Assembly (NCBI RefSeq): GCF_026712205.1
Contig: NZ_JAPPUW010000018.1
Coordinates: 1-64,000, forward strand
From: Pelomonas aquatica
Lineage (GTDB): Bacteria > Pseudomonadota > Gammaproteobacteria > Burkholderiales > Burkholderiaceae_C
Length of the DNA: 64,000 nt
Direction of reading: 5' to 3'
The position numbers and the translations under genes are program-made. The notes beneath the pieces were generated by a model. That model was not told the origin of the DNA and did not search any database. It saw only the letters and a list, made by a program, of their open reading frames with translations. Below, one piece after another: positions 4,331-58,699 of this stretch (position 1 is the stretch's first letter; every line of letters starts with the position of its first letter).

Positions 4331-4570
4331 CAGCCTAGATTCGGCAGTTGGGCGGGCCCGAGGGGCTGGCGAGGCGGCCGGCTGGCAAGGCGCGCCGACG
4401 AAGTGGGCTGCTGCCCACGAGGAGAAGCAACGCAGTCAGCGGGCCGAAACGCCAGACCAGCGGGCCTGCAGCGTTGCCCACCGAAGTGGTAACCGTCGCA
4501 CCAGCGCCAAGGCCTTGATGCGACGAGACTTTCGATGAGTAGGAAGCGGTCAACTGCCGGATCTAGGCTG
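4331..4570. repeat. Nested palindromic element A (240 bp)
   Basis: Outer inverted repeat CAGCCTAGATTCGGCAGTTG (4331-4350) pairs with 4551-4570 with one mismatch. Inside is one clear module: an imperfect stem (about 4355-4372 with 4450-4466) enclosing the framework GGCAAGGCGCG, hairpin TGGGC-TGCT-GCCCA (4404-4417) and GCAACGC (ending 4433). A second, degenerate module in the opposite orientation follows at about 4465-4525. The layout matches the elements at 26668 and 58438. It fills most of the gap between the LDH-family gene and the next gene; a 72-codon antisense ORF inside it looks meaningless. I do not recognise a named repeat family. Confidence 0.8.
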
Positions 4571-4680
4571 GGTGCATCCCCAGGCTTGTGGATGAGCGCC
4601 ACGGCCGAGGCAACACCGCCACGGGCGTTCCTCTTAAAAGCTAGGGGGTCGAATTCCTCGACACCACAAAGGAGCCCCTC

Positions 4681-5118
4681 ATGCGGAGACTGTCTACGAT
4701 CCTCCTCGCGCTGACGCTGGCCGGTGCCGCGACCCTCGGCTGGGCGCAGGACACCAAGCCCTACAAGGAAGGCCCCGTCACCGAGGTCTCCTACATCAAG
4801 ATCAAGCCGGGCCGCTTCGACGACTACATGCAGTTCCTGTCCACCACCTACCGGGCCAATATGGAGGCACAGAAGAAGGCCGGCCTGATCCTCGGCTACA
4901 AGATCTTCGGCAAGCAGGCCCGCACGCCGCAGGAGCCCGACCTGATCCTGGCCATCACCTACGCCAACATGGCCGCGCTGGACCGCATTGACGAGTCCGA
5001 GGCCGTCATGGCCAAGTTGCTGGGCAACACGGCGGCCCAGAACAAGGCGGCCATCGAGCGCGGCCCGATGCGCGAGGTGCTGGGCAGCGAACTGATCCGC
5101 GAGCTGGTGCTGAAGTAA
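4681..5118 (+). CDS. Secreted small protein, probable dimeric alpha/beta-barrel fold
   Basis: 145 residues with a clear Sec signal peptide (basic MRR, hydrophobic core, cleavage near GWA-QD at about residue 22). The mature part has the beta-strand/helix rhythm of small antibiotic-monooxygenase-like or EthD-like dimeric barrels (VSYIKIKPGRFDDYMQFL at its start), but no catalytic residues I can name. The start is well supported: AAAGGAG lies about 7 nt before the ATG. It is a single gene, convergent with the chemoreceptor gene 12 bp downstream. The function is unknown and the periplasmic location is inferred from the signal peptide. Confidence 0.8.
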   Translation: MRRLSTILLALTLAGAATLGWAQDTKPYKEGPVTEVSYIKIKPGRFDDYMQFLSTTYRANMEAQKKAGLILGYKIFGKQARTPQEPDLILAITYANMAALDRIDESEAVMAKLLGNTAAQNKAAIERGPMREVLGSELIRELVLK

Positions 5119-5130
5119 GGCCGCCGTCGA

Positions 5131-6213
5131 TCAGCGGGTGCGGAAGCTGCCGACCAGCTCGTTGAGCCGGTGGGCCTGGGACTTCAGGCTCTCGGCCGCC
5201 GCCGCGCCCTCTTCCACCAGCGCAGCGTTCTGCTGCATGGACTGGTCCAGCCGGTCCACCGAATCGGCTATCTCGCGCAGGCCGGCGCTCTGGGTGCGGG
5301 CCAGCTCGGTGGCGTCCTTGATCAGATGGGCCACGCGCTCGACGCTGCCCACCACCTCCTGCATCTGCGTGCCGGCATCGTTGACGAGGCGCGAGCCGGC
5401 GTCCACCTGCTCGACGCTGGCGCCGATCAGCGTCTTGATCTCCTTGGCCGCGCCGGCCGAGCGCTGGGCCAGGCTGCGCACCTCGGCCGCGACGACGGCG
5501 AAGCCGCGGCCCTGCTCGCCCGCGCGGGCCGCTTCCACGGCCGCGTTCAGCGCGAGGATATTGGTCTGGAAGGCGATGCCGTCGATGACGCCGATGATGT
5601 CGGCGATCTTGCGGCTGCTCTGGCTGACGCCATTCATCGCCTCCACCGCGTTCAGCACCACGGCGCCGCTCTGGCGGGCCTGGGCCGAGGTGGTCTGCGC
5701 CAGCGCGCTGGCCTCGCCCATGGCCTCGCTGCTGTGGCGGGCGGCCTCGGTCATCTGGCGCATGGAGCTGGCGGCCTGCTGCAGGTCGGCGCTGCCCTGC
5801 TCGGTGCGCTGGCTCAGGTCGAGGTTGCCGGCGGCGATCTCGCTGGCCGCCGTGTTGACCTGCTCGGCGCCGTCGCGCAGCGTGCCCATCATGTTGCGCA
5901 GCGTGTCCTGCAGCCGCACCAGGGCCGACATGCCGGCGCGGGCGCTGGAGTTGCCGCGCAGCACGATGTCCTCGCGCAGGTCGCCCTCGCTCATGCGGTG
6001 GGCGCCGCTGAGCAGGTCGCCGAGGAAGTCGCCGACGCTCTTCGCGCCGTCCAGGTAGACGAAGGCGATGGCCGCGCCGAGCAGCAGGCTGCCGCCGATC
6101 AGCCAGCCCGCCGGCATGCCGTAGAGCACGCCGCCGATGACCCAGGCCTGCAGCGCGAGGGACAGGCCCAGGTAGAGGGCCAGGCGCTGGGCAATGGACA
6201 GGTTGGCGAACAT
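5131..6213 (-). CDS. Methyl-accepting chemotaxis protein without a periplasmic sensor domain
   Basis: 360 residues. Two adjacent hydrophobic helices (about 10-31 and 36-54) are separated by only a few residues, so there is no periplasmic ligand domain. A HAMP-like stretch follows (about 56-110), then a long coiled coil. The conserved signalling tip is intact around residues 211-240 (DGIAFQTNILALNAAVEAAR). It should dock CheA/CheW in receptor arrays at the inner membrane and probably senses a membrane or cytoplasmic cue, or forms mixed trimers with other receptors. Alanine/glutamine-rich methylation helices flank the tip. No che genes are nearby. Confidence 0.92.
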   Translation of the reverse strand: MFANLSIAQRLALYLGLSLALQAWVIGGVLYGMPAGWLIGGSLLLGAAIAFVYLDGAKSVGDFLGDLLSGAHRMSEGDLREDIVLRGNSSARAGMSALVRLQDTLRNMMGTLRDGAEQVNTAASEIAAGNLDLSQRTEQGSADLQQAASSMRQMTEAARHSSEAMGEASALAQTTSAQARQSGAVVLNAVEAMNGVSQSSRKIADIIGVIDGIAFQTNILALNAAVEAARAGEQGRGFAVVAAEVRSLAQRSAGAAKEIKTLIGASVEQVDAGSRLVNDAGTQMQEVVGSVERVAHLIKDATELARTQSAGLREIADSVDRLDQSMQQNAALVEEGAAAAESLKSQAHRLNELVGSFRTR

Positions 6214-6328
6214 CGGGCTTGTCTCCTCTTGCGGGTGGTGCGCAGCAATGTAGCCCAGCGGGCTGCGCGGCGGCGTGGAGGTTTCACGCCAGAACCGCCC
6301 GCCGTTCGCACCGCGGCCGGGGTGATGC

Positions 6329-7471
6329 TCAGGCCAGCGCGCGGCCGATCAGGATCTTCTGCACCTCGCTCGTGCCCTCGTAGATCTGGGTCACGCGCAC
6401 GTCGCGGTAGATGCGCTCGACGGGGAAGTCGCTGAGATAGCCGTAGCCGCCGTGGATCTGGATGGCCTCGGAGCAGACCTTCTCGGCCATCTCGCTGGCG
6501 AACAGCTTGGCCATGGCCGCCTCCTTCAGGCAGGGCCGGCCGGCGTCCTTCAGGCTGGCGGCATGCCAGATCAGCTGGCGCGCGGCCTCGATCTGCATGG
6601 CCATCTCGGCCAGCTTGAACTGCACCGCCTGGTGGTTGAAGATGGGCTCGCCGAAGGTGACCCGCTCCTTGCTGTAGCGCAGCGCCGCCTCGAAGGCCGC
6701 GCGCGCCATGCCCACCGACTGCGACGCGATGCCGATGCGCCCGCCCTCCAGGCCCGACAGCGCGATCTTCAGGCCCTGGCCCTCGTCGCCGAGGCGGTTG
6801 GCGGCCGGCACGCGGCAGTTCTCGAACAGGATCTGCGCCGTGTCGCTGCTGTGCTGGCCCATCTTCTCCTCGATGCGCGCGACCGTGTAGCCGGGCGTGT
6901 CCGTCGGCACGAGAAAGGCGCTGATGCCCTTCTTGCCGGCGGTCCTGTCCGTCACGGCCATCACGATGGCCACGTCACCATGCTTGCCGCTGGTGATGAA
7001 CTGCTTGACGCCGTTCAGCACATAGTCGTCGCCATCGCCATCATTGACACGTTGGGCCGTCGTGCGCAGGCCGCCGGCCTCGGAGCCGACATGGGGCTCC
7101 GTCAGGCAGAAGGCGCCCAGCATGTCGCCGCGCGCCAGCGGCTTCAGGAAGCGTTCCTTCTGCGCGTCGTTGGCGAAGGCCATCAGGATGGAGCAGACCG
7201 GGCAGTTGTTGACGCTGACCACCGTGCTCGTGCCACCGTCGCCGGCCGCGATCTCCTCGAGGATGACGGACAGCGCGAGATAGTCCAGGCCCGCGCCGTC
7301 CCACTCGGTGGGCACGGCGACGCCATAGCAGCCCAGCGCGGCCAGGCCCTTGAGCTGCTCGGCGGGGAAGTGATGGTTCTTGTCCCAGGCCGCCGCATGG
7401 GGGGCGATCTCGGCCTGCACGAAGGCGCGGATGGCGTCCTGGACGGCCAGGTGGTCGTCGCTCAACAGCAT
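6329..7471 (-). CDS. Acyl-CoA dehydrogenase
   Basis: FAD enzyme forming the alpha,beta double bond of acyl-CoA, 380 residues, full length. It has the FAD/substrate signature CLTEPHVGSEAGG and the ITSGKHGD segment, and the catalytic Glu365 is in IYEGTSEVQ, the position used by short- and medium-chain enzymes. The C-terminal four-helix domain is complete (IHGGYGYLSDFPVERIYRDV). Electrons would pass to ETF. It precedes an SDR gene and a LysE-type exporter gene on the same strand, 35 bp or less apart except for their own overlaps, so co-transcription is possible. Chain-length preference cannot be read with confidence; butyryl-CoA-like is likely. Confidence 0.93.
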   Translation of the reverse strand: MLLSDDHLAVQDAIRAFVQAEIAPHAAAWDKNHHFPAEQLKGLAALGCYGVAVPTEWDGAGLDYLALSVILEEIAAGDGGTSTVVSVNNCPVCSILMAFANDAQKERFLKPLARGDMLGAFCLTEPHVGSEAGGLRTTAQRVNDGDGDDYVLNGVKQFITSGKHGDVAIVMAVTDRTAGKKGISAFLVPTDTPGYTVARIEEKMGQHSSDTAQILFENCRVPAANRLGDEGQGLKIALSGLEGGRIGIASQSVGMARAAFEAALRYSKERVTFGEPIFNHQAVQFKLAEMAMQIEAARQLIWHAASLKDAGRPCLKEAAMAKLFASEMAEKVCSEAIQIHGGYGYLSDFPVERIYRDVRVTQIYEGTSEVQKILIGRALA

Positions 7472-7506
7472 GGAGGTCTCCTGTTCTTGTTGTGGGAGGC
7501 GCGACG

Positions 7507-8172
7507 TCAGAAGTCCAGCCGCTGCCCGTCGTAGTTGAAGAAGCTGCCGGTGTCGGCCGGCTTCACGCTGGCCAGCACGGTGCGCATGCCGGCGATGCTG
7601 GTGGGCGCGTCGATGTCGGCGCCGCTGCCGCCCATGTCGGTGCGCACCCAGCCAGGGTGGAAGCTGATGACGGTGGCCTTGGCCGCGAGGGCCAGCGACG
7701 CGTCCTTCATGACCGAGTTCAGCGCCGCCTTGGATGCGCGGTAGAGCCAGCCGCTGCTGCCGGTGCGCAGGCCGATGGAGCCCATGCGCGACGAAATCAG
7801 CGCCACGCGGGCGCCGTCGGCGAGGTGGTCGGCGACCTGGGGCAGCAGGCGCATGGGGCCGAGCACATTGGTGCGCATGACGGCATCGAAATCGGCCTCG
7901 GTGGGCGTCTGCAGCGCATCGGCGCGCGGCCCGAACACGCCGGCGTTGACGACGACGACGTCGAAGCGCTCGCCGTCGATCTGCCAGGCCAGGCCGGATG
8001 CGCTGGCCGCGTCGGCGACGTCCAGCCTCAGCGGCCTGGCGCCGAGCTCGGCGATGCGCTGCTCGCCGGCATCGTCGCGCGCCGTCGCGGTGACGCGTGC
8101 GCCCGCGGCGCGATACTGGCGCACGAATTCCAGGCCCAGGCCGCGCGAGGCGCCGACGATGAGGACGTTCAT
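7507..8172 (-). CDS. SDR family oxidoreductase, C-factor-like
   Basis: Short-chain dehydrogenase/reductase of 221 residues. The cofactor motif is GASRGLG (7-13), NAG is at 76-78, the active-site serines are at 127-128, and the catalytic Tyr144 and Lys148 sit in YRASK. The short length and the C-terminal VKPADTGSFFNYDGQ segment resemble the CsgA/C-factor group of SDRs. ARD after beta-2 gives no firm cofactor call. Its ATG overlaps the stop of the LysE-type gene by 4 bp (ATGA), which indicates translational coupling with that upstream gene. The substrate is unknown. Confidence 0.9.
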   Translation of the reverse strand: MNVLIVGASRGLGLEFVRQYRAAGARVTATARDDAGEQRIAELGARPLRLDVADAASASGLAWQIDGERFDVVVVNAGVFGPRADALQTPTEADFDAVMRTNVLGPMRLLPQVADHLADGARVALISSRMGSIGLRTGSSGWLYRASKAALNSVMKDASLALAAKATVISFHPGWVRTDMGGSGADIDAPTSIAGMRTVLASVKPADTGSFFNYDGQRLDF

Positions 8173-8798
8173 GGCTTGGTCAGTGCCAGCTTGGCCGCCA
8201 GCACGGTGAAGAGGCCGGCGCCGCCGAGGTTGAGGCCGCGCCCGACCCAGGGCCGCGGCCGGCTGCGGCGCAAGGGGGTCACCAGCGCGACCAGCACGAG
8301 CAGGAAGGCCAGACCCTGCACGATGAACCAGGCCCCGAGGAAGAGGAAGGCCAGCGTCTTGTCCGGCGCATCAACTGCGATGAACTGCGGCAGCAGGGCC
8401 AGGAAGAACAGCGCCACCTTGGGGTTGAGCGCATTCGTGAAGAAGCCCTGGCGGGCCGTGCGCCACGGCGAGGTCGGCGCGGCGATCTCGGCCGCGGCGG
8501 AGGCCGGCCTCAGCCCAGCGCGCGCCATGCCCCAGGCGACGTAGAGCAGATAGGCGGCACCGACGAGCTTGACGGCCGTGAAGGCCTCGGCCGACGTGGC
8601 CAGCAGCGCCGCCAGGCCGAAGGCCGCCGCCAGCGTGTGCAGCACGCAGCCGGCCATGATGCCGAGGGCCGCTGCCACGCCCTGGCGCCAGCCGCCCCGC
8701 AGCGTGCTGGCGACCGCATAGGCCATGTCGACGCCGGGCGTGGCGTTCAGGATGAAGACCGTGGCGGCGAAGAGGGGGAGGTCGTGGGTGCCAAGCAT
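8169..8798 (-). CDS. LysE/RhtB family amino-acid exporter
   Basis: Inner-membrane protein of 209 residues with about six hydrophobic helices. Near the start it has the family signature NATPGVDMAYAVASTLRGG, close to the NPGP...GRRAG pattern of RhtB proteins. Members export amino acids or homoserine lactones by proton exchange. It overlaps the downstream SDR gene by 4 bp. The particular solute cannot be predicted from sequence. The preceding VapC gene ends 12 bp upstream and is compositionally different. Confidence 0.88.
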   Translation of the reverse strand: MLGTHDLPLFAATVFILNATPGVDMAYAVASTLRGGWRQGVAAALGIMAGCVLHTLAAAFGLAALLATSAEAFTAVKLVGAAYLLYVAWGMARAGLRPASAAAEIAAPTSPWRTARQGFFTNALNPKVALFFLALLPQFIAVDAPDKTLAFLFLGAWFIVQGLAFLLVLVALVTPLRRSRPRPWVGRGLNLGGAGLFTVLAAKLALTKP

Positions 8799-8809
8799 GG
8801 TGACGGCAG

Positions 8810-9235
8810 TCAGACAGGAATGTAGATGCGAGGCACCAACGCCCGAGCTTGAGCACGGCGGGCGAAGCGGCGGTCGTCGAAGGTGGCAACGCTCTCGCAG
8901 TCGCGGTAACTGACGTGGTGCAGGGCATCCGCGAAGTCGAAGCCATCCAGCAGCATGTCAACCGCAGCCGACACCCGTTCGCGGTCCTCGATGCGTACCT
9001 GAGGCAGCGCCAGCAGATGCAGCATGGCAGCACCAACGTCGCGGCGCTCCAACTCGTAGTGCCCCCGTAGCACCCACTCGAATTCCAGCAAAACCGTTTT
9101 GGCCACAGCCAGTGGGCGGCCTGACTCGATCAGCCTCCGGGCGGCCTCTCGTTGTTTCTGGGTCACCGCATCGGCGTCGTCTTCGACGAAATATCTCGCC
9201 AGCACATTGGTGTCGAGGCCAACGCAGTCCCTCAC
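8810..9235 (-). CDS. vapC: PIN-domain toxin, VapC family
   Basis: PIN-domain ribonuclease of 141 residues. The acidic Mg-binding residues are all visible: Asp8 (GLDTNVL), Glu51 (LLEFEWVL), Asp103 (DFADALH) and Asp120/121 (TFDDRRF). VapC toxins cut tRNA or rRNA loops. It starts with GTG, and this GTG overlaps the TGA of the antitoxin gene by 4 bp, which is the classic antitoxin-first coupling. It is markedly less GC-rich than the flanking genes and part of a small accessory islet with the HNH gene. The target RNA is unknown. Confidence 0.92.
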   Translation of the reverse strand: MRDCVGLDTNVLARYFVEDDADAVTQKQREAARRLIESGRPLAVAKTVLLEFEWVLRGHYELERRDVGAAMLHLLALPQVRIEDRERVSAAVDMLLDGFDFADALHHVSYRDCESVATFDDRRFARRAQARALVPRIYIPV

Positions 9236-9471
9236 CTGGAACCTCGCAGCAACTGAGCCGCGTCAAAGTCAGCTGCCACGGGCTTGCGTTTGGACTTGAG
9301 CATTCCAAATCCTTGGGTGTTCAGGTCGCCCGGTCGGTGTGCGACCGCCAATTCGACACGATCCTCCAACACTCGAAACTCGACGCGACTGCCCTGGCGC
9401 AAGCCGAGCTTGCGGCGGATCTCGACGGGAATGGTGACTTGGCCTTTGAGGGTCACGGCGGCGGTGGTCAT
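9232..9471 (-). CDS. vapB: AbrB/MazE-fold antitoxin, VapB family
   Basis: 79 residues. The N-terminal SpoVT/AbrB swapped-hairpin DNA-binding domain (about 4-48) is recognisable from VTLKGQVTIPVEIRRKLGL. The C-terminal tail (about 55-79) should wrap around and inhibit the PIN toxin. It precedes vapC with a 4-bp overlap, so antitoxin is translated first, and such complexes normally repress their own promoter. The stretch 9472-9498 upstream is short, so the promoter probably overlaps the end of the HNH gene. Confidence 0.92.
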   Translation of the reverse strand: MTTAAVTLKGQVTIPVEIRRKLGLRQGSRVEFRVLEDRVELAVAHRPGDLNTQGFGMLKSKRKPVAADFDAAQLLRGSR

Positions 9472-9498
9472 GCGACGCTCCTTACTTGGTAATGAAGA

Positions 9499-10305
9499 CT
9501 AGCACAAGCCAATTCCCGACGGGCTCGCCTGGGAGAGGTGCAGTCCGCTCAACATCGCCCTGACTTCAACCAGCGAGTAGGCGGGCGTCCGCGAATGAAT
9601 GACGGCGTGGCAGTTCGGGCAGACAGGCTTCAAGTCGGCAACGGGGTCGACCTCATGCTCGCCTTCGCGCGTGGACAGTTGAACTTCGTGGTGGACGTGA
9701 ATCAGCTCAAGCGGCAGGCCGCAGTAAGTCTGCTTCAAGTTGGTTCCGCAAACTTGGCAGTCGAAACCGTAATGCGCCAGACATGCTTGGCGGGCCTTGG
9801 CGGAGCGCTCGAGGCGCTGCATGGACACATCCCGAAGCGCTCCCTCGACGAATCGGTCACCACTCTCGACCATCAGCAGGTCTTCGTCGGCCGCAAGACC
9901 ATGGTCCTGAAAGAGGACTCGAAGCGCCAGCGTGGGGTTCGTGATGATCAGGTAGGTGGTTGTCCTTCCACCCCGACGCACCTGATGCGTTGTGAAATCA
10001 GCTGGCGCACAGCCGTACCGGGAACAAAACGCTGGCACAAGGCTGTCCACGAATTCAGACGGGCAACCATTGCTCGCCTTTCCACGCCAATCCGAAAACC
10101 TGTAGCCAACCACCCCACCTCGGCCAATGACGGTCTGATTGATATAGCCGCAGCGCTCCCCGCCACGAATCAAGTTGACGGTGAGGCCCGAAAATCTTTC
10201 ACTGGCCTCTGCTGCGAATCCGTGCCGTGCAAGGATCGCGAGCAGGCTACCTGCGCGAGACGGCAGCTCACGGCCCACGTAGCCCTGCACAAGCACGACA
10301 GCCAC
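9499..10305 (-). CDS. HNH endonuclease domain protein
   Basis: 268 residues. The C-terminal part (about 170-250) is an HNH nuclease with a structural zinc site: CQVCG at 183-187, the HVHH block at 203-206, and CPNCHAVIH (229-237). The N-terminal 150 residues match no family I know and may be a target-recognition domain, as in McrA/COG3183-like putative restriction endonucleases. The start is a GTG 8 nt after the thiolase stop, with GAGG of that stop region as a possible ribosome site. Composition is lower in GC than the neighbours and it sits next to vapBC, suggesting a transferred defence or stability module. No partner methylase is present. Confidence 0.8.
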   Translation of the reverse strand: MAVVLVQGYVGRELPSRAGSLLAILARHGFAAEASERFSGLTVNLIRGGERCGYINQTVIGRGGVVGYRFSDWRGKASNGCPSEFVDSLVPAFCSRYGCAPADFTTHQVRRGGRTTTYLIITNPTLALRVLFQDHGLAADEDLLMVESGDRFVEGALRDVSMQRLERSAKARQACLAHYGFDCQVCGTNLKQTYCGLPLELIHVHHEVQLSTREGEHEVDPVADLKPVCPNCHAVIHSRTPAYSLVEVRAMLSGLHLSQASPSGIGLC

Positions 10306-10312
10306 CCAGGCC

Positions 10313-25468: not shown

Positions 25469-26668
25469 ATGCAGCTGACCGGCGACCAGCATCTGCTGAA
25501 GACCCTGAACCGCATGGCCATCGTGCGGCGGCTCAGCGCCCACCCCGGCCAGTCGCGCGCGGCCCTGGCCGAGGCGCTGATGCTGACCAAGTCCACCGTC
25601 AGCGGCCTGGTGCGCGAGCTGATCGACGAGGGCTGGCTGCTGGAGCGCGAGGTCGTCGCCACCGGCGAGCTGGGCCGCCGGCCAACGCCGCTGTTCATCC
25701 ACCAGGGCCGGCTCGTGCTGCTGGGCGCCGAGGTCGGCGTGGACGGCGTGCACGCCATCGCCACCTCGTTGACCGGCGACATCCTCGCGCGGCTGCGCAG
25801 CCCGCTGGACGCCGGCCACGACGCGCACGCGGCGCTGGCCCGGCTCGCGCGCCTGCTGCTGCAGCTGCAGGCGCCGCTGGACGGCGCCAGCCAAAGGGTC
25901 GTCGGCATCGGCGTGGGCCTGCCCGGCGGCGTGGACGAGCCCAGCGGCCACCTGCACTTCGCGCCCAACCTCGGCTGGCGCGACCTGCCCGCCGCGCGGC
26001 TGCTGGCCGGCCATCTGCGCGGCACGGCGCTGCAGGCCGCGCCCCTCTACCTGCAGAACGAGGCCGACGCGGCCGTCATCGGCGAGCTGGAGTTCGCCGC
26101 CGAGCGCCGGCCCGACCCCTTGGTCTACCTGAGCCTCGGCCTGGGCGTCGGGGCCGGCGTCGTCGTCGAGGACCGGCTGCTGACCGGCGCGCGCGGCCTG
26201 GCCGGCGAGGTCGGCCACACGACGCTGCAGCTCGACGGCCCGGCCTGCTCCTGCGGCCGCCTGGGCTGCGCCGAGGCACTGGTGGGCTTTCGCGCGATGC
26301 TGCCCGCCGACGCGGCCGGCGCCGGCCTGGCCGAGGTGCAGCGCCGGCTGGCCGACGCCCCGGCCGACACCGCCGCCGCCATCGCGCGCGCGGGCCGCTA
26401 CCTCGGCATGCTGCTGGGCAACCTCTGCGCCGCCTACGACCCCGGCAGCATCGTGCTCGGCGGCCCCGCCGTCGAGCTCGGCGCGACCCTGCTGCAACCC
26501 GCCTTCCAGATGCTGGAGCGCCATGCCGGCGCCGCCGGCCTGCGGCCGCCGCTGGTGACCGTCTCGCGCTTCGGCGCCGACGCGGTCGCCGTGGGCGCCG
26601 CAGCGCTGGCCCGCTACCGACTCACCCGCCCCCTGATCGCCGCCAGCCGCCTGGCCGCGGCCGCCTAG
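25469..26668 (+). CDS. ROK family transcriptional regulator, XylR-like
   Basis: 399 residues. A winged HTH comes first (about 10-70: SRAALAEALMLTKSTVSGLV), then a ROK sugar-kinase-like domain with the zinc motif CSCGRLGCAEAL preceded by GEVGHTTLQL. The HTH plus ROK layout is that of XylR/Mlc repressors. It is the first plus-strand gene of the xylose segment and is followed by the xylosidase, transporter, xylA and xylB genes. Two sugar regulators back to back suggest dual control, one perhaps sensing xylose and the other an oligosaccharide. A 266-bp palindromic element starts at its stop codon. Confidence 0.9.
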   Translation: MQLTGDQHLLKTLNRMAIVRRLSAHPGQSRAALAEALMLTKSTVSGLVRELIDEGWLLEREVVATGELGRRPTPLFIHQGRLVLLGAEVGVDGVHAIATSLTGDILARLRSPLDAGHDAHAALARLARLLLQLQAPLDGASQRVVGIGVGLPGGVDEPSGHLHFAPNLGWRDLPAARLLAGHLRGTALQAAPLYLQNEADAAVIGELEFAAERRPDPLVYLSLGLGVGAGVVVEDRLLTGARGLAGEVGHTTLQLDGPACSCGRLGCAEALVGFRAMLPADAAGAGLAEVQRRLADAPADTAAAIARAGRYLGMLLGNLCAAYDPGSIVLGGPAVELGATLLQPAFQMLERHAGAAGLRPPLVTVSRFGADAVAVGAAALARYRLTRPLIAASRLAAAA

Positions 26669-26933
26669 GGGCCTGTTTACACGGCGGGGATCGGATGCGT
26701 TGTCACTCAAAAGCCCGCGAGCAAGGCGCGAAGTCGAAGCTGGGGTCATCCCCAGCGAGGCTTCGCAACGCCGCGCGCGGGCTTTTGAGTAACAACCCTT
26801 CGGGAGAGGGTCTGCGCGGGTGCAGGGCTAGGCGTGCGACGCCGCCTGGGCTCATGCCCAGGCAAGGCGCGCAACGACGCCATGCGCCCGCGCAGACCCT
26901 CTCGCACCGATTCCCGCCGTGTAAACAGGCCCC
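26668..26933. repeat. Nested palindromic element B (266 bp)
   Basis: Outer arms 26668-26694 and 26907-26933 are inverted repeats of 27 bp with one mismatch, and contain GGCCTGTTTACACGGCGGG. Module 1: 15-bp stem 26705-26719/26776-26790, with an inner hairpin CTGGGG-TCAT-CCCCAG (26740-26755). Module 2: 17-bp stem 26804-26820/26887-26903, with inner hairpin CCTGGGC-TCAT-GCCCAGG (26845-26862). Module 1 carries GCAAGGCGCG on the left and GCAACGCC on the right; module 2 carries a variant. It starts on the stop codon of the ROK gene and ends 7 nt before the GH43 start. No ORF of note is inside. Confidence 0.9.
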
Positions 26934-26939
26934 TGCCCC

Positions 26940-31527: not shown

Positions 31528-32991
31528 ATGTTTCTTGGCATCGACCTCGGCACCTCCGAGCTGAAGCTGCTGCTGCTCGACGAGCAGCACCGCATCGCCG
31601 CGACCACCGGCGTGGCCCTCACCGTGCAGCGCCCGCAGCCGCTGTGCAGCGAGCAGGACCCGGCCGCGTGGTGGGCCGCACTCGACGAAGGCATGGCGCG
31701 GCTGAGGCAGGACCACGGCGCCGATCTGGCCGCGGTGCGCGGCATCGGCCTGTCGGGCCAGATGCACGGCGCCGTCACGCTGGACGCGGCCGGCCAGGTG
31801 CTGCGCCCGGCCATCCTGTGGAACGACGGCCGGGCCGGCGCGCAGTGCGCCGGGATGATGGCCGCCTGCCCCGAGCTGCCGGCCATCACCGGCAACCTCA
31901 CGATGCCGGGCTTCACGGCCCCCAAGCTCGCGTGGATGCGCCAGCACGAGCCCGAGCTGTTCGCCCGCGTCGCCCGGGTGCTGCTGCCCAAGGACTGGCT
32001 GCGCCTGCAGCTGTCGGGCGAATACGTCAGCGAGATGAGCGACGCCGCCGGCACGCTGTGGCTGGACGTGGCGCAGCGCCGCTGGTCGCCCGAGGCGCTG
32101 GCGTTGACGGGCCTGGACGAGGGCCGGATGCCGCGCCTCGTCGAAGGCAGCGAAGCCAGCGCGATGCTGAAGCCCGCGTTGGCCGCGCGCTGGGGCCTGG
32201 GCGCCGGCATTCCCATCGCGGGCGGCGGCGGCGACAACGCGGCCAGCGCCGTCGGCATGGGCGTCGTGAAGCCGGGCCAGGGCTTCCTGTCGCTCGGCAC
32301 GTCGGGTGTCATCTTCCTGTGCAACGAAAGCTTCAGCCCCAACCCGGCCCGCGCGGTGCACGCCTTCTGCCACGCGCTGCCCGGCACCTGGCACCAGATG
32401 AGCGTCATGCTCAGCGCGGCCAGTGCGCTGCGCTGGGTCACGCAGACGCTGGGCCAGCCGGGCGAGGCCGTGCTGATCGACCAGGTCGCCCGGCTGACGC
32501 CGGCCCAGCGCGAACGGGCGCCGCTCTTCCTGCCCTACCTCAGCGGCGAGCGCACGCCGCACAACGACGCCAACGCCCAGGGCGTGTTCTTCGGCCTCAC
32601 GCACGAGCATGACGCGGCGGCGCTGGGTTATGCGGTGCTGGAGGGCGTGGGCTTCGGGCTGCTGGATGGCTGGCAGGCCTTGCAGGCGGGAGGCGGCGCG
32701 GCGGAGTCGCTTTGGCTGGTCGGTGGCGGCGCGCGCAGCGCCTGGTGGGCGCGGCTGCTCGCGTCGCTGCTGGGCACCCGTCTCGTCAACGGCGTCGGCG
32801 CCGAAGCCGGTGGCGCTTTGGGCGCGGCGCGGCTGGCCTGGCTTGCCTGCGGCGGCACGCCGGGCGAGGTCTGCCGCACGCCCGACATCGCCCGCGTCGC
32901 CGAGCCCGATGCCGCGCTGGCGGCGGCACTGCGGCCTCGCCACCAACGCTTCCAGCGCCTGTACGGCGCGCTGCGCGCCGAGTTTGGTTAG
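31528..32991 (+). CDS. xylB: Xylulokinase
   Basis: FGGY-family kinase of 487 residues phosphorylating D-xylulose to xylulose 5-phosphate for the pentose phosphate pathway. The phosphate-binding loop is GIDLGTSELKLLL, the substrate region is GIGLSGQMHGAV, and the catalytic aspartate is in GGGGDNAASAVG. The conserved GGGARSAWW lies near the C-terminus. It is the last gene of the xyl operon; a long hairpin overlaps its stop codon. Confidence 0.97.
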   Translation: MFLGIDLGTSELKLLLLDEQHRIAATTGVALTVQRPQPLCSEQDPAAWWAALDEGMARLRQDHGADLAAVRGIGLSGQMHGAVTLDAAGQVLRPAILWNDGRAGAQCAGMMAACPELPAITGNLTMPGFTAPKLAWMRQHEPELFARVARVLLPKDWLRLQLSGEYVSEMSDAAGTLWLDVAQRRWSPEALALTGLDEGRMPRLVEGSEASAMLKPALAARWGLGAGIPIAGGGGDNAASAVGMGVVKPGQGFLSLGTSGVIFLCNESFSPNPARAVHAFCHALPGTWHQMSVMLSAASALRWVTQTLGQPGEAVLIDQVARLTPAQRERAPLFLPYLSGERTPHNDANAQGVFFGLTHEHDAAALGYAVLEGVGFGLLDGWQALQAGGGAAESLWLVGGGARSAWWARLLASLLGTRLVNGVGAEAGGALGAARLAWLACGGTPGEVCRTPDIARVAEPDAALAAALRPRHQRFQRLYGALRAEFG

Positions 32992-33045
32992 GGCCTGTTC
33001 ACACGACGGCAGCAGGTCGCCTGCCGCCGTGTGAACAGGCCCTAG
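32990..33045. terminator. Long hairpin after xylB sharing the stem of element B
   Basis: AGGGCCTGTTCACACG... pairs with its complement to give a stem of about 24 bp with one bulge and a GGTCGCC loop. The stem sequence (GGGCCTGTTYACACGRCGG) is nearly that of the outer arms of element B at 26668. It lies between convergent xylB and tonB-like genes and probably stops transcription from both sides. Confidence 0.8.
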
Positions 33046-45477: not shown

Positions 45478-45558
45478 GCGTGGCTCAGTCCGACGCTTCC
45501 GGGCCAAGCCATGGCTCGGCTCTCCATCCGCAGCGGATAGAGAAGCAAATACAGAAAT

Positions 45559-45634
45559 GCAACCACAGAGGCACAGAGCCACAGAGAAAAGCCTTCTCCG
45601 GGCTTCCTCTGTGGCTCTGTGCCTCTGTGGTTGC
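45559..45634. repeat. Perfect 28-bp inverted repeat
   Basis: Arms 45559-45586 and 45607-45634 are exact reverse complements built from three tandem near-copies of CCACAGAG. The 20-nt loop can pair a further 5 bp (AAGCC/GGCTT). It lies between the convergent sulfate-binding and WYL regulator genes and probably acts as a bidirectional terminator. Similar CACAGAGGCACAGAG palindromes are known as dispersed repeats in unrelated genomes. Confidence 0.9.
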
Positions 45635-45648
45635 CTTTGATTTGGGCT

Positions 45649-53484: not shown

Positions 53485-54335
53485 ACCGCCTTTTGTTCCA
53501 GCACGTAATTCGCCCCGTCGTACTGCCCCAGCCGCTCGACCAGCAGCGGCAGGCATTCGGCCAGTTCGTCGTGCAGCGTGAACGGCGGGTTCGCGATGAA
53601 CATGCCGCTGCCCATCATGCCGAAGCCGCGCTCGTCGGCCTGGGCCACGGTCAGGCGCACATGCAGCCAGCCCTTCTTGGCCAGGGCATCGGCGCTGGCC
53701 TTCAGGCGCTGGGCGAGCTGCGTCGATTCGAGCAGCTGCAGCTGCGGGTACCAGACCATGGCGACCGTGTCCGGCGCGCGCTCCAGCGCCTCGCGCAGCG
53801 CCGCCAGCACCTTGGCGTAGTCGGTCTTGATCTCGTAGGGCGGGTCCATCAGCAGGGCCGCGCGGCGCGTCGGCGACGGCAGCTCGGCCTTGATGGACGC
53901 GAAGCCGTCGCGGTCGCTGACCTGGGTGTTGGGCCGCGCCTCAAGGTAGCTGGCCAGGATGCGGTGGTCGGTCGGGTGCAGCTCGTAGGCGCGCAGCCGG
54001 TCGGCCTCGCGCAGCACGAAGTTGGCGATGGCCGGCGAGCCGGGGTATTGGCGCAGCTGGCCGTCGGGGTTGAAGGCGCGCACCAGGCTGACGTAGTCGG
54101 CCAGCGGCGCGGGCAGATCCTTGTCGTCGTAGAGCTTGGCGATGCCACCGGCGTACTCGGCATTCTTCTGCGCATAGCGGCCCTCGACCGAGTAGCCGCC
54201 GGCGCCGGCATGCGTGTCGATCAGCGTGTAGGGCTTGTCCTTTTCACCCATATAGCGCAGCACGCGGGTCAGCACGAGGTGCTTGAGGACGTCGGCATGG
54301 TTGCCGGCATGGAAGGCGTGGCGGTAGGCGAGCAT
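53481..54335 (-). CDS. rlmJ: 23S rRNA (adenine(2030)-N(6))-methyltransferase
   Basis: 284 residues. It starts MLAYRHAFHAGNHADVLKH, the RlmJ (YhiR) signature. The SAM-binding DTHAGAGGY and the catalytic N6-adenine motif DPPYE (in LLMDPPYEIK) are present. It methylates A2030 of 23S rRNA before ribosome assembly. The first gene of a two-gene unit with the LacI regulator, overlapping by 4 bp. Divergent from the old yellow enzyme gene. Confidence 0.95.
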   Translation of the reverse strand: MLAYRHAFHAGNHADVLKHLVLTRVLRYMGEKDKPYTLIDTHAGAGGYSVEGRYAQKNAEYAGGIAKLYDDKDLPAPLADYVSLVRAFNPDGQLRQYPGSPAIANFVLREADRLRAYELHPTDHRILASYLEARPNTQVSDRDGFASIKAELPSPTRRAALLMDPPYEIKTDYAKVLAALREALERAPDTVAMVWYPQLQLLESTQLAQRLKASADALAKKGWLHVRLTVAQADERGFGMMGSGMFIANPPFTLHDELAECLPLLVERLGQYDGANYVLEQKAV

Positions 54336-54437
54336 GGCGTGATTGTCGCTAACACACCCCCATCAACCCCGCTCGGCCGGGGAAAGCCGTGGCGCCGCTA
54401 GCCTTGCGGCCATTCGTTTCATCCCCATTTCCCTGCG

Positions 54438-55520
54438 ATGACCACCCTCTTCGACCCCATCCGCTTCGGCGACATCCCGCTGGCCAACCGCGTCGTCATG
54501 GCGCCGCTGACGCGCAACCGCGCGACGCAGCAGACGCCGCAGGCCCTCCACGTCGAGTATTACCGCCAGCGCGCCGGCGCCGGCCTCATCATCACGGAGG
54601 CGACCCAGATCCGCCCCGACGGCCAGGGCTATTTCGACACGCCCGGCATCCACACGCCCGAGCAGGTGGCCGCCTGGAAGCAGGTGACCGACGCGGTGCA
54701 TTCCGAGGGCGGCAGGATCGTCGTGCAGCTCTGGCATGTGGGCCGCATCTCGGTGAACAGCCTGCAGCCGGGCGGTCAGGCGCCGGTATCGTCAACCCAC
54801 CGCGCAGCCAAGACGCGCACCTACGCCGCCCATGGCGAGCTGGTGCCGACCGACGCGCCGCGCGCGCTGGCCACGCATGAGCTGCCGCAGCTGATCGCCG
54901 ACTATGTGCAGGCCGCGAAGAACGCGATGGCCGCCGGCTTCGACGGCGTCGAGGTGCACGCCGCCAACGGCTATCTGCTCGACCAGTTCCTGCGCGACAG
55001 CGCCAACGACCGCAGCGACGAATACGGCGGCTCCATCGAGAACCGCGCGCGGCTGCTGGTCGAGGTGATGACGGCCGTGGCCCACGCCATCGGCGCGGGC
55101 CGCACGGCGCTACGCCTGAGCCCGGTGACGCCCAGCAACGACATCGGCCAGGACAGCGACCCGCAGGCCCTCTTCAACCACGTCGCCGAGCAGCTCGCGC
55201 CGCTGAAGCTGGCCTTCCTGGAGGTCGTCGAGGGCGCCACCGGCGGCCCGCGCGACCACGCGCCCTTCGACTACGCCGCGCTGCGCCGCCGCTTTGCCGG
55301 CCCCTACATCGCCAACAACGGCTACGACCGCGCGATGGCCCTGGACGCCGTGGCCGGCGGCCGTGCCGACGCGGTGGCCATCGGCCGGCCCTTCATCGGC
55401 AACCCCGACCTCGTCGAGCGCATCCGCCACGACCTGCCCTGGGCCGTGCCGCAGAAGGAGAGCTTCTACGGCGGCGGCGCCGAGGGCTATACCGACTACC
55501 CGGCGCTCAAGCGGGCCTGA
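54438..55520 (+). CDS. Old yellow enzyme family alkene reductase
   Basis: FMN-dependent ene reductase, 360 residues, NemA/morphinone-reductase type. FMN contacts are at PLTRNRA and QLWHVGR. The substrate-binding His/Asn pair is in VEVHAANGYLLDQFLRDSAN, and ANNGYDRAMAL plus AIGRPFIGNPDLV bind the phosphate. It uses NADPH to reduce activated C=C bonds, nitro esters or N-ethylmaleimide. It is followed 5 bp later by an SGNH-like secreted protein gene. The NemR repressor is not present. Confidence 0.94.
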   Translation: MTTLFDPIRFGDIPLANRVVMAPLTRNRATQQTPQALHVEYYRQRAGAGLIITEATQIRPDGQGYFDTPGIHTPEQVAAWKQVTDAVHSEGGRIVVQLWHVGRISVNSLQPGGQAPVSSTHRAAKTRTYAAHGELVPTDAPRALATHELPQLIADYVQAAKNAMAAGFDGVEVHAANGYLLDQFLRDSANDRSDEYGGSIENRARLLVEVMTAVAHAIGAGRTALRLSPVTPSNDIGQDSDPQALFNHVAEQLAPLKLAFLEVVEGATGGPRDHAPFDYAALRRRFAGPYIANNGYDRAMALDAVAGGRADAVAIGRPFIGNPDLVERIRHDLPWAVPQKESFYGGGAEGYTDYPALKRA

Positions 55521-55524
55521 GCCC

Positions 55525-56727
55525 ATGAACCGGGGCCTGCCGCTCCTCGCGCTCGCGGCGGTACTCGCCGGGCCGGCCATCGCCGCCGAGCCCGTCGCCG
55601 TGCTCTTCGTCGGCAACAGCTACACCTTCGGTCGCGCTGACCCGGTGATGGGCTACAACGCCGCCGCCGTGCACGACCTGACGGCCGGCTTCAACGCCGC
55701 AAACCCGGCCGGCACCAACAGCCACCCGGCCGGCACGCCGGGCGCCGGCAGCTTCGAGCCCCATCCCTGGGGCGGCGTGCCCGGCATCGTCAAGAAGATG
55801 GCCGACGAGGCCGGCCTGGCCTGGGACGTATCGCTGTCCACGCGCAACGCGGCCTCGCTGCGCGGCCATTTCCTGCAGGCCTACAACGCCGACTGGCCGC
55901 TGCGCGCCAATGTCGCGAGCCGGCGCTGGGACAGCGTCGTGCTGCAGGAGCAGAGCGACGCGGCCCTGCCTGCCGGCCGCAGCCACAACGCCAACCTGGC
56001 CGCCTTCGATGCCTTTGCGGACCGCTTCGAGCGCTTCATCCACGACGGCGCCGCACAACGCTTCACGGAGGCGGAGCTGTTCGGCGGCCTCGCGGCCTGC
56101 GTGGCCACGGGCCTGCCCGAGGCCGCCTGCAACGCGCCGCACGACATCGCGGCCAACCCCAATGCCAGCGCCGCCACCCGCGTCTGGCTGGAGCAGACCT
56201 GGGCGCGGCCCGACCTCGTCGAGGCCCATGCTGCTACGCGGCCTGACCTCGACAGCCCCGATGGCCGCCCCGTCGGCACCGGTCAGGCGGCGCCGACCTA
56301 CTACGCCAGCCTGGCCGCGATGACGGCCGACCTGCACGCCGCCTTCCAGGCCCGGGCCGCCGCCAACCCCGGCTTTGCCGGCGTGGTGCCGGTGGGCGAC
56401 GCCTTCCAGCGTGCGGTGGGCCAGGGGCTGGCGCGCGGCCACGGCTTCTATGGCAGGGCCGACGCGACCGGCGCCATCGACCTGTGGTGGCTGGACCGCA
56501 CGCACGCCAGCAGATACGGCTCCTACCTGGCCGCGCTGACGCTGTTCGGCCGCCTCAGCGGCCGCGACCCGCTGACGCTGGGCAGCGGCGAGCAGGCCGC
56601 CGCCGACCTCGGCATCGATGCGGCGACGGCGCGCGCGCTGCAGCGCGTGGCCAGCGAGCAACTGGGTTTTGTCCCGGCCGCGGCGCTCAGCCCTGGAACG
56701 CGCCCGGGTTCCGCGCCGACCCGCTGA
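55525..56727 (+). CDS. Secreted SGNH-hydrolase-like protein
   Basis: 400 residues with a signal peptide (cleaved near AIAA-EP, about residue 21). It begins VAVLFVGNSYTFGRADPVMG, where the block-I serine lies in a GNSYT motif, as in DUF4886-type SGNH relatives. A QEQSDAALPAG segment and a late WLDRTHASRYGSYLAAL with Asp/His in the block-V position complete a plausible triad. The probable role is an esterase of unknown substrate in the periplasm. It directly follows the old yellow enzyme gene; its 3' end overlaps the convergent beta-helix gene by 41 bp. Confidence 0.75.
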   Translation: MNRGLPLLALAAVLAGPAIAAEPVAVLFVGNSYTFGRADPVMGYNAAAVHDLTAGFNAANPAGTNSHPAGTPGAGSFEPHPWGGVPGIVKKMADEAGLAWDVSLSTRNAASLRGHFLQAYNADWPLRANVASRRWDSVVLQEQSDAALPAGRSHNANLAAFDAFADRFERFIHDGAAQRFTEAELFGGLAACVATGLPEAACNAPHDIAANPNASAATRVWLEQTWARPDLVEAHAATRPDLDSPDGRPVGTGQAAPTYYASLAAMTADLHAAFQARAAANPGFAGVVPVGDAFQRAVGQGLARGHGFYGRADATGAIDLWWLDRTHASRYGSYLAALTLFGRLSGRDPLTLGSGEQAAADLGIDAATARALQRVASEQLGFVPAAALSPGTRPGSAPTR

Positions 56728-57847
56728 GCGCCTGGCTGCCGTGCGGGTGGCGGTACTCGCGCGTCGGCATCAGCTTCAGGCCGCCGCCCTCGCCGGCATC
56801 CGCCGCCTGGCCGCGCAGCGCCGAACCGGGCTTGAGCCGGTAGTCGTCGCGCGCCGCGCGCACGAACTCGTCCCAGTCGGCGCTGAAGTTGGCGCGCCGC
56901 GTCCAATGCCCCTCGGCCGCCAGCTTAGGGGCGCCGACGAGCAGGTTGTTGGCCAGCACCACCTCGGCCTCGCGCGGCGCCACGCGCAGCCAGATGCCGC
57001 CGCTGGGCAACTGGTCCACCAGCGTGTTGTTGACGAGGTAGAGGGCCTGCTTCGGCCAGGAGGCGCCCTCGACGCCGAAGGAGATGACGTGCGGGTTCTC
57101 CGTCGTCGAGCTCTGCACGATGAGGTTGCCCATGACGACGGCGACGCCGCCGTTCGGGAACTCCAGCTCGTAGCTCGCGCGCCCGCCGATCTCGTCGGAC
57201 AGGCGGTTGTAGAGGATGTGGTTCAGCGCCGCGCGGCTCTTCAGCAGGTGGCCGTGCAGGCCGTGGTGGAAATAGCTGCCCGTGACGGCCAGGCGCTTGA
57301 TGGCACCGACATAGAGGTTATGCGTCTTGCCCTCGCGCGGCAGGATGGTGCCGAAATCGCAGTCGACGATGTCGAGCTCGATGTCGTCGCCGCTGGCCGT
57401 CAGCAGGCCGTTCTCGTTGTCGCGGAAGCCGCAGTCCACCAGCGTCAGCGAGCCGGCCTCCAGCCGGATGCCGGCGCCGTTGCGGTCCGGCACGGTGGCG
57501 CCGCTGAAGTCCAGGCCCTCGATGCGCATGCGCCGGCCCGTCGTCACGAACAGGCCCTTGCCCTGGGCGTGGGCGCCGGCCGCGACCAGCCGCGCGCGGC
57601 CGCCGACGGCGCGCAGCGTCAGCTCGTTCTGCGTCCACGTGGCGGCGTCGCCGACATAGTCGCCCGCGTCGATCTCGACCAGCATGCCGTCGCGGGCCTG
57701 GCGCGCCGCCGCGGCCAGCGACTTGACGGCGCGGCGCGGGCCGACCTGCAGCACCGGCGCCGCGCGGGCCGGCGCCAGCGCCGGCGCCAGGCCGGCCATC
57801 AGCAGCGTGCGCCGGCGCAGCGGCGGGCAGGCCTCGGGCCACATCAT
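56687..57847 (-). CDS. Tat-signal right-handed beta-helix protein
   Basis: 386 residues. The N-terminus PPLRRRTLLMAGLAPALAPA has the twin-arginine pattern, so it is probably exported folded. The mature part has repeated short strands with stacked Asn/Val/Ile (GSLTLVDCGFRDNENGLL, LVNNTLVDQLPSGG), typical of right-handed parallel beta-helix (pectate-lyase/NosD-like) proteins. No catalytic residues can be named. It starts ATGATG and overlaps the MOSC gene stop by 4 bp, indicating coupling. It overlaps the SGNH-like gene tail-to-tail. Confidence 0.82.
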   Translation of the reverse strand: MMWPEACPPLRRRTLLMAGLAPALAPARAAPVLQVGPRRAVKSLAAAARQARDGMLVEIDAGDYVGDAATWTQNELTLRAVGGRARLVAAGAHAQGKGLFVTTGRRMRIEGLDFSGATVPDRNGAGIRLEAGSLTLVDCGFRDNENGLLTASGDDIELDIVDCDFGTILPREGKTHNLYVGAIKRLAVTGSYFHHGLHGHLLKSRAALNHILYNRLSDEIGGRASYELEFPNGGVAVVMGNLIVQSSTTENPHVISFGVEGASWPKQALYLVNNTLVDQLPSGGIWLRVAPREAEVVLANNLLVGAPKLAAEGHWTRRANFSADWDEFVRAARDDYRLKPGSALRGQAADAGEGGGLKLMPTREYRHPHGSQALSGSARNPGAFQG

Positions 57848-58419
57848 GCGATCCTGCGCATCTTGGCCTTGAACAGCTCGACGATGCCGACCTCGCGCGG
57901 CCCCGGCAGCAGCTCGAAGCCCTCGCCCGCGGCGATGCTGCCCTCGCGCCGTACGGCCAGGTAGAAGCCGCACCAGCCGCTCTGCGCCATCAGCTTGGCC
58001 GCCTGGTTGAAGCCCATGTGGGCGTTGAACTTGAAGCAGGGGTAGCGCGGCTCGGACACGACCAGCTCGCAGCCCGCAAAGCGCAGCACGTCGCCGATCC
58101 AGACCCGGCTCTCCGGCAGGCCGGCCAGCGTCAGGTTCTCGCCGCAATCGCCGGGCTGCAGCGCGCCCGCCACCTTGGCCTGGCCGCGCACCGTGCGCCA
58201 GAACTCGTAGTGCTCCTGCGGGTAGGCATAGACGGCCTTGGACAGGCCGCCGTGCACGCTGGGGTCGGCCTGCTCGTCGCCCTCCAGGCCCAGCAGGCCC
58301 ACGGCGACCGGCCCGCCGCGGGCGCGTTTGCGGATGGCCGAGTCCACGGCCTGGCCATCGGTCGCGGTGAAGTGTTCGACGCGGGCGGTGTTGACGCTGA
58401 TGAGCTGCATGGCGCGCAT
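57844..58419 (-). CDS. MOSC domain protein, YiiM-like
   Basis: 191 residues. The MOSC beta-barrel occupies about 35-150. Its signature is the EGDEQADPSVHGGLSKAVYA segment, GDCGENLTLAG, and the cysteine in SEPRYPCFKFN that would hold sulfur or the molybdenum cofactor. YiiM proteins reduce N-hydroxylated compounds with Moco. An ATG at 58410 is an alternative start. It is upstream of, and coupled to, the beta-helix gene. Its own upstream region holds repeat element C. Confidence 0.9.
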   Translation of the reverse strand: MRAMQLISVNTARVEHFTATDGQAVDSAIRKRARGGPVAVGLLGLEGDEQADPSVHGGLSKAVYAYPQEHYEFWRTVRGQAKVAGALQPGDCGENLTLAGLPESRVWIGDVLRFAGCELVVSEPRYPCFKFNAHMGFNQAAKLMAQSGWCGFYLAVRREGSIAAGEGFELLPGPREVGIVELFKAKMRRIA

Positions 58420-58437
58420 TGTCCCGGAGGTCGGCTA

Positions 58438-58699
58438 GGAGCCTGCGCGGCCGAGCGTGGGACCCGCGCCGGGGCGATTTGCGGGGCCAGGCAAGGCGCC
58501 GGCGAGGCGTGGGTCGGGACCCACAACGAGCCGGCAACGCCGCATGGCCCCGCAAATCGCCCCGGCCCTTCGGGTTGGGCCTGGCTGGGGCGCATGCCGC
58601 GTTGCTCGTCGTTGCGGGCGCGAGCCCGCGGCCTCCTCGCGCCTTGCCTGCGCCCCAGCCAGGCCCAACGCGGGTGCCACGCTCGGCCGCGCAGGCTCC
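58438..58699. repeat. Nested palindromic element C (262 bp)
   Basis: Outer arms 58438-58460 and 58677-58699 are perfect 23-bp inverted repeats that extend imperfectly by about 8 bp. Module 1: perfect 21-bp stem 58469-58489/58545-58565, inner hairpin TGGGTC-GG-GACCCA (58510-58523). Module 2: perfect 21-bp stem 58574-58594/58649-58669, inner hairpin GCGGGC-GCGA-GCCCGC (58614-58629). Module 1 carries GGCAAGGCGCC and GGCAACGCCGC; module 2 carries the same framework on the other strand (GGCAAGGCGCGAGG and GAGCAACGC). It lies between the divergent MOSC and antiporter genes. Confidence 0.92.

What the first reader, a model, noticed from the sequence alone, without database searches (positions are those of the whole stretch)
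4331..58699. Family of large nested palindromes (elements A, B, C)
Three intergenic elements of about 240-266 bp share one architecture with mostly unrelated stem sequences: long outer inverted repeats enclosing two successive hairpin modules, each with its own long stem and small tip hairpin. The outer and module stems are near-perfect but differ between elements, so pairing, not sequence, is conserved. No transposase is linked. They could be RNA structures, non-autonomous mobile elements of a REP/BIME kind, or topology/replication sites.
Basis: seen in the sequence. Interest (0 to 1): 0.75.

Follow-up and report, generated by a model that had tools for sequence, protein, structure and literature searches.

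The report
Correia-like palindromic mobile elements
Three intergenic hairpin-rich sequences belong to a large group of small mobile DNA elements that lack genes of their own, share a central motif resembling the Correia element of Neisseria, and in two families mostly sit exactly on the stop codons of neighbouring genes.

Summary
B (26667-26934) and C (58435-58702) have the architecture described: outer stem, two hairpin modules, and also a CCC-NNN-GGG mini-hairpin between them. A (4331-4570) has only one proper module. All belong to a genome-wide set: 99 module matches in the 5.1-Mb genome (floor), in families with unrelated stems and ends but a conserved hairpin tip (CAAGGCGC...GCAACGCCG). 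The tip occurs in 60 of 100 genomes of the kinship and 23 of 299 over the phylum (own included in both). Family E's tip matches the Neisseria Correia core (BLAST, 86% over about 55 nt); B/C reach Correia only through intermediates or with structure included. C is absent from 16 of 16 readable orthologous sites in the genus; three single-module copies also have empty sites. So these are non-autonomous mobile elements (MITEs), probably moved in trans by an unidentified enzyme. Stem changes are mostly compensated with little G-U bias, and one B module is inverted relative to its homologues, which fits replication template switching. In families D and E, 22 of 25 copies sit exactly on a neighbouring gene's stop codon (about 10% expected), in a biased orientation. 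New variant of a known kind.

The parts
4331..4570 (+). Element A: outer arms 4332-4350 / 4551-4569 (both with CTAG), one module, weak second half
   Evidence: ten places in the genome at 78% identity or more, A itself included
4386..4433 (+). conserved tip (core) of A
   Evidence: motif scan; R1 hit 4366-4455, E 2.9e-5
26667..26694 (+). B, left outer arm; the CTAG at its edge holds the TAG stop codon of the ROK-family gene ending at 26668
26700..26795 (+). B, module 1 (20-bp stem, tip on + strand)
26796..26804 (.). B, mini-hairpin CCCTTCGGG
26805..26902 (+). B, module 2; tip on + strand, i.e. inverted relative to its homologues L010 and L011
26907..26934 (+). B, right outer arm
58435..58468 (+). 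C, left outer arm, beginning CTAGGAGCCTG
58469..58565 (+). C, module 1 (tip on + strand)
58566..58574 (.). C, mini-hairpin CCCTTCGGG
58575..58668 (-). C, module 2 (tip on - strand); probably a diverged inverted copy of module 1 (C is 76% identical to its own reverse complement)
58669..58702 (+). C, right outer arm
32989..33044 (.). 56-bp hairpin TAGGGCCTGTTCACACG...: outer stem of the B type without modules, starting at the TAG of the ORF ending at 32991

Best explanation
A, B and C are non-autonomous, palindromic mobile elements (MITEs) of a large group whose common part is a short imperfect hairpin tip related to the core of the Neisseria Correia element. SHOWN: multi-copy; absent from orthologous sites in sister species; families with different ends and stems share the tip; stem arms change in a compensated way; a module is inverted relative to its homologues; outer stems without modules exist; most D and E copies lie on stop codons. 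INFERRED: a transposase encoded elsewhere recognises the ends (TA or CTAG in B/C, TNA in D/E) and inserts the element; a target that is part of a stop codon leaves the gene intact because the duplication restores the stop; polymerase template switching between the arms keeps the stems perfect and flips the loop. The tip keeps its mismatches while the stems beside it are corrected, so it is probably under its own selection, as a binding site for the mobilising enzyme or a host protein.
For: Copies: A ten places, B and C families, 99 module matches with R1. Empty sites: C absent from 16 of 16 genus loci in which both flanking genes were read, of 19 other genus genomes; an E copy on C1, and an E and a D copy on C11, absent in G003 with the gene's stop codon at the same place. 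Stop codons: 22 of 25 D/E copies with both ends recognised, against 36 of 344 non-coding TNA sites in the window. Pairing. Arms: G-T 10, A-C 9 in 42 modules; compensated against one-sided changes 28:21 at 1-2 differences and 67:16 at 3-4. Inversion of B module 2. Correia link: family E tip to N. gonorrhoeae, E 2e-7 and 8e-7, 34 places in each of two records. Arm homogenisation and spacer inversion as effects of template switching: PMC8604942 (start of abstract in search listing).
Against: No autonomous partner was found. Among 94 matches to the B/C end (up to 2 mismatches) in the own genome, the only facing pair of 0.3-3.4 kb is 1032 bp apart and does not extend beyond the searched letters; four facing pairs of 3.4-4.1 kb were not followed up, save that one right end belongs to a two-module element. 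The F-end pattern listed only element-sized or shorter pairs (list cut off). A sequence-only profile of B/C tips does not find Correia: E 2.2, behind a hit in the reversed window at 1.9; with all families but E, 0.22. TSDs of B/C are not clean: TA on the left but CA or TG on the right in C and B. In A the outermost bases are symmetric, not duplicated. In G006 the gene at the D locus ends further on. In relatives G-T (28) exceeds A-C (17) in stems, and in ten more own modules 5 to 0, so some RNA-level constraint is possible.
Confidence: 0.82

Rival explanations
1. Structured RNA elements: transcribed with the neighbouring gene, the hairpins act as RNase III sites, 3'-end stabilisers or terminators, and pairing is kept by selection on the RNA.
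For: Correia transcripts are known RNase III substrates (PMC10969869, PMC2649163, passages). Most D/E copies sit at gene ends. G-T excess in relatives, 28 to 17, and 5 to 0 in ten own modules.
Against: C and five other B/C copies of 23 were called between divergent genes. G-T and A-C are about equal in the own-genome set (10 and 9). No Rfam match at gathering score. The copies tested are absent at orthologous sites, so no conserved regulation there. It does not explain copy number or empty sites; it could be a secondary effect.
Confidence: 0.12
2. REP/BIME/REPIN-type elements moved by a Y1 (RAYT) transposase acting on single-stranded hairpins.
For: Inverted pairs of imperfect hairpins; fixed orientation at stop codons in family D (13 of 13) recalls oriented single-strand insertion; two Y1_Tnp matches in the genome, one above the cut-off.
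Against: No GTAG in the first 30 nt of either strand of 46 modules; CGTC in 11 of 46, about what such GC-rich DNA would give by my estimate. No tip motif within 1.5 kb of the two Y1_Tnp matches. Elements are about 105-280 bp with long terminal arms and, in D/E, mostly a duplicated TNA.
Confidence: 0.06
3. Topology, replication or transcription-insulation sites kept by the host at chosen places.
For: Strong hairpin potential; mostly intergenic.
Against: Flanking genes of the 23 B/C elements are codirectional 11, convergent 3, divergent 6, at a contig or locus edge 2, inside a called ORF 1. The sites tested are lineage-specific. Module-less outer stems exist.
Confidence: 0.03

Closest known systems
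Correia element / CREE / NEMIS of Neisseria
   Same: Inversion is reported for Correia elements (PMC10969869, passages).
   Different: The 26-bp Correia repeat is absent from A-C as read. B and C have two modules, a mini-hairpin and an outer stem (about 268 bp). Family E ends are TACGG..., with TNA flanks rather than TA. Two papers say that Correia repeats or CREE are found only in Neisseria (PMC2649163, PMC5039591, passages).
Other bacterial palindromic MITEs (ERIC, RUP, YPAL)
   Same: Small, multi-copy, stable hairpins, mobility inferred from target duplications or empty sites (PMC2229807, passages).
   Different: Not compared sequence by sequence here; no shared tip is known to me (recalled).
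REP / BIME / REPIN with RAYT
   Same: Inverted pairs of imperfect hairpins.
   Different: No GTAG tag, longer, with terminal arms, no RAYT found beside a tip.
Template-switch-corrected quasipalindromes
   Same: Arms homogenised, loop inverted (PMC8604942; PMC8794818 on creation of hairpins: abstract starts in a search listing only).
   Different: There a mutational process; here it would act on a mobile family and might create its members.

Membership tests
MITE (non-autonomous element with terminal inverted repeats) | multi-copy, short, interspersed | tested here: met
MITE (non-autonomous element with terminal inverted repeats) | terminal inverted repeats | tested here: met
MITE (non-autonomous element with terminal inverted repeats) | empty sites in relatives | tested here: met
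   C: 16 of 16 readable loci; two E copies, one D copy and one A copy elsewhere in the genome. B and the window's A not tested
MITE (non-autonomous element with terminal inverted repeats) | target-site duplication | tested here: inconclusive
   D/E: identical triplet at both ends in 14 of 18; single in the empty site of one E copy. B/C: TA on one side, altered on the other in B and C. A: not seen
MITE (non-autonomous element with terminal inverted repeats) | an autonomous element with the same ends | tested here: not met
   none for B/C ends in own genome (four pairs of 3.4-4.1 kb not followed up) or F ends in genus (list cut off); other families not tested
Correia element (CREE/NEMIS) | 26-bp Correia repeat as terminal repeat | tested here: not met
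   ends of A, B, C read directly against the published variants in PMC5039591
Correia element (CREE/NEMIS) | characteristic core | tested here: inconclusive
   family E: met. B/C: with structure E 1.3e-9, sequence only not significant
Correia element (CREE/NEMIS) | 104-108 or 153-157 bp | tested here: not met
   A 240, B 268, C 268 bp; family E mostly 109 bp including both TNA
Correia element (CREE/NEMIS) | RNase III processing, IHF binding, promoters | not testable with these tools
   -
REP/BIME/REPIN | GTAG or CGTC tag at the hairpin base | tested here: not met
   GTAG 0 of 46, CGTC 11 of 46 modules in the first 30 nt of either strand; the CGTC number is near chance by my estimate
REP/BIME/REPIN | RAYT gene flanked by copies | tested here: not met
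   (own genome, two Y1_Tnp matches, 1.5 kb on each side)
Rfam RNA family | match at gathering score | tested here: not met
   whole window

The most novel reading that the evidence does not exclude
The conserved tip is the recognition site, in folded single-stranded DNA, of an unidentified enzyme that moves any sequence made palindromic around it. Template switching at the tip creates and keeps the arms, so one core can 'palindromise' unrelated flanks and found new families. Insertion is directed to stop codons in a fixed orientation. This would make Correia elements, long without a known mobiliser, one branch of a phylum-wide system.
Probability: 0.22. Interest if true: 0.9.

Novelty: new variant of a known kind. 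Interest (0 to 1): 0.7.

Why it matters
Correia elements are described as confined to Neisseria with unknown mobilisation (PMC2649163, PMC5039591, passages seen). Relatives of their core in Burkholderiales and other groups of Pseudomonadota would give many genomes in which to look for the enzyme. Insertion exactly on stop codons, in a fixed orientation, would be an elegant way for a mobile element to avoid harming genes. Stems that stay paired without RNA selection would be a warning for covariation-based RNA discovery.

Tried and rejected
RAYT link: own-genome search for Y1_Tnp, two matches, no tip motif nearby. Autonomous IS with B/C ends: one 1-kb pair, rejected because its ends do not extend beyond the searched letters; F ends: none in a list that was cut off; families A, D, E, G, H not searched. 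Plasmid search with C and with A: no match (B not searched); with the L217 element: no match. Phage search with the Correia-type element: no match. Terminator/insulator idea: rejected because gene orientations are mixed. Ancestral short hairpin that gained modules: less likely than loss, because L069 keeps the module-proximal right arm CGCGACCCATTGCC. Covariation as proof of RNA: rejected as proof, because template switching gives the same pattern. Paper 10.1371/journal.pgen.1001277 is not held.
Full report
OBSERVATION. In the window the longest inverted repeats include those of B and C. Folded as DNA, B has z -15.65 and C z -15.86, with 0 of 200 shuffles as stable. A has z -4.98, with outer arms and one module but no clear second one. 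B and C consist of an outer stem, module 1, a mini-hairpin CCCTTCGGG, module 2 and the outer stem's other arm.

A GENOME-WIDE SET. The window is part of a 5.12-Mb genome in 56 contigs. BLAST with A found ten near-full places, A included, and B and C brought further families. A script that looks for two palindromic modules around a mini-hairpin accepted 23 of 35 loci given to it; the 12 rejected were mainly A-type. Mini-hairpins of the 23: CCCTTCGGG 15, CCCGAAGGG 4, CCCGCAGGG 3, CCCCGGAGGG 1. A covariance model (R1) from 27 distinct modules gave 99 matches in the genome at E <= 0.1; only 150 of 13864 candidates were scored, so this is a floor. Among them are single-module families with other ends: D (TNA + GAGNTTGAGAG), E (TNA + TACGG), F (GCNACGCTGAANAAGTCC), G and H. 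They share the tip CAAGGCGC ... GCAACGCCG, with small variations, while stems and ends look unrelated.

PAIRING. Over 27 modules all 20 closing pairs change on both sides and 97.5% of their cells pair; covariation score 0.885 against 0.19 in shuffles and at most 0.18 when slid. Over 80 distinct modules, mostly from other genomes, 93.5% of all cells pair (that alignment is fitted to the structure). In 42 own modules the outer 18 pairs gave 726 Watson-Crick, 10 G-T, 9 A-C and 11 other. Selection on RNA should favour G-T over A-C; the set found without an RNA model shows no such bias. Sets found with the RNA model lean to G-T: relatives 28 to 17, ten further own modules 5 to 0, with 17 of 80 distinct rows dropped as shifted or partial. 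Between similar modules, compensated differences already equal or exceed one-sided ones: 28 to 21 in pairs with 1-2 differing positions, 67 to 16 with 3-4 (pairs are not independent). Module 2 of B is inverted relative to its homologues L010 and L011. Arm homogenisation and spacer inversion are the two effects given for polymerase template switching (PMC8604942, start of abstract in a search listing). The tip keeps its mismatches beside corrected stems, which suggests separate selection on it (inference).

MOBILITY. C is absent from all 16 same-genus loci in which both flanking genes (MOSC domain; Na/H exchanger) could be read, of 19 other genus genomes: 78-109 nt between the matched gene ends there, against 359 nt between the two genes here. 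Copies of C at up to 95% identity lie elsewhere in those genomes. On C1, an E copy reads TCA|TACGG...CCGTA|TCA, while G003 has a single TCA at that point. On C11, an E and a D copy are both absent in G003 and G004; the host genes there end in a stop codon at about the same position, also in G012 for the E locus, but in G006 the gene at the D locus runs further. An A copy on C1 is absent in G003. Short hairpins (window 32989-33044; L069, L070, L072) look like outer stems that lost the modules.

STOP CODONS. A first, stricter pattern recognised both ends in 18 of 22 D/E copies given to it; a flanking triplet was a stop for a neighbouring frame in all 18, 17 of them with a coding-like frame; the two flanking triplets were identical in 14 of 18. 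With looser patterns and copies from other genomes, both ends were recognised in 25 of 36: own D 9 of 10, own E 10 of 12, other D 5 of 13, other E 1 of 1. In 22 of these 25 the triplet is the stop codon of a coding-like frame (own D 9, own E 8, other D 4, other E 1). Controls: 9 of 539 TNA sites in the flanks; 36 of 344 non-coding TNA sites in the window (binomial p about 5e-19, treating copies as independent). The window control counts called genes, a slightly stricter rule than the one used for the copies. The tip strand is antisense to that gene in 13 of 13 D copies and 7 of 9 E copies. Gene calls are my own codon-usage calls trained on six genes of the window. For B/C, 12 of 23 have a coding-frame stop (mostly TAG) at an edge against 1 of 184 shifted positions; the outer edge was set wrongly for at least two of the 23 (L009, L011), and the stop could also be supplied by the element. 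So I rest the claim on D and E.

DISTRIBUTION. A tip model (R2, 30 sequences) matched 60 of 100 genomes of the kinship at E <= 1e-3, own genome included, and 20 of 20 genomes of the genus. In an even draw over the phylum it matched 23 of 299 at E <= 1e-4: own, 4 same family, 5 same order, 5 same class and 8 that share only the phylum, all in one family. Two modules around a small hairpin are also seen in G161 and G224 (same class) and in G372, G191 and G234 (same phylum only) (in G224 the small hairpin is a variant). Named records with a tip match: Paucibacter sp. KBW04, Mitsuaria sp. 7, Cupriavidus basilensis, Comamonas odontotermitis, Martelella mediterranea, Cupriavidus metallidurans and Neisseria gonorrhoeae.

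CORREIA. L227 and L228 (G204) contain the published Correia repeat tatagtggattaaatttaaatcaggacaa exactly (PMC5039591 passage; check), and a 141-base query from L227 matches 40 places (the limit) in each of two N. gonorrhoeae records. Family E of the window's genome matches N. gonorrhoeae at 86% over about 55 nt, E 2e-7 and 8e-7, 34 places in each of the two records. R1, built from B/C modules only, finds L227 at 52.5 bits, E 1.3e-9, but part of that score comes from the stem. Sequence-only profiles do not reach significance for Correia: E 2.2 from B/C tips, behind a chance hit in the reversed window at 1.9, and 0.22 from all families but E, ahead of the reversed window at 1.7; none of 300 decoys with shuffled cores appeared within E 10 in either search. 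Family E itself is found by those profiles at E 0.022 and 0.0033. The link from B/C to Correia is therefore indirect. PMC2649163 and PMC5039591 (passages) state that Correia repeats or CREE are found only in Neisseria, and the first that the mobilising mechanism was not determined. I saw no report of relatives elsewhere in the listings of searches, nor of stop-codon targeting by such elements in that of one search; most subscription journals are not in that library.

VERDICT. Mobile, non-autonomous palindromic elements: a new, nested variant of a known kind, with a widespread tip related to Correia, arms that look corrected by template switching, and in two families a striking stop-codon preference. 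Function of the tip and the mobilising enzyme are open.

Noticed in passing
45555-45638: 84-bp palindrome AAATGCAACCACAGAGGCACAGAGCCACAGAGAAA (94% complementary arms, 14-nt loop), without the tip motif; may be another repeat family.
   Followed up: no
G000:C10:64007-64172 (7 bases beyond the window's end): A family D element lies just outside the window.
   Followed up: partly
L078 (G000:C16:52136) and L068 (G000:C14:56282): Left ends TAGGGCCTG(C/T)TCAC without an evident partner arm nearby: probably broken elements.
   Followed up: no
L165 (G003:C12): What looks like a two-module element in which module 2 has been lost while module 1, the mini-hairpin and the right outer arm remain.
   Followed up: no
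tips of many modules, e.g. L017, L036, D family: CTAGGCG tips tend to go with CAACGACG, CAAGGCG tips with CAACGCCG; this linked change is not explained by simple pairing and was not counted.
   Followed up: no
A-type copies L004-L008: The outermost bases differ between copies (AACC, AGCC, ATCC) but look like inverted repeats within a copy, not direct duplications.
   Followed up: no
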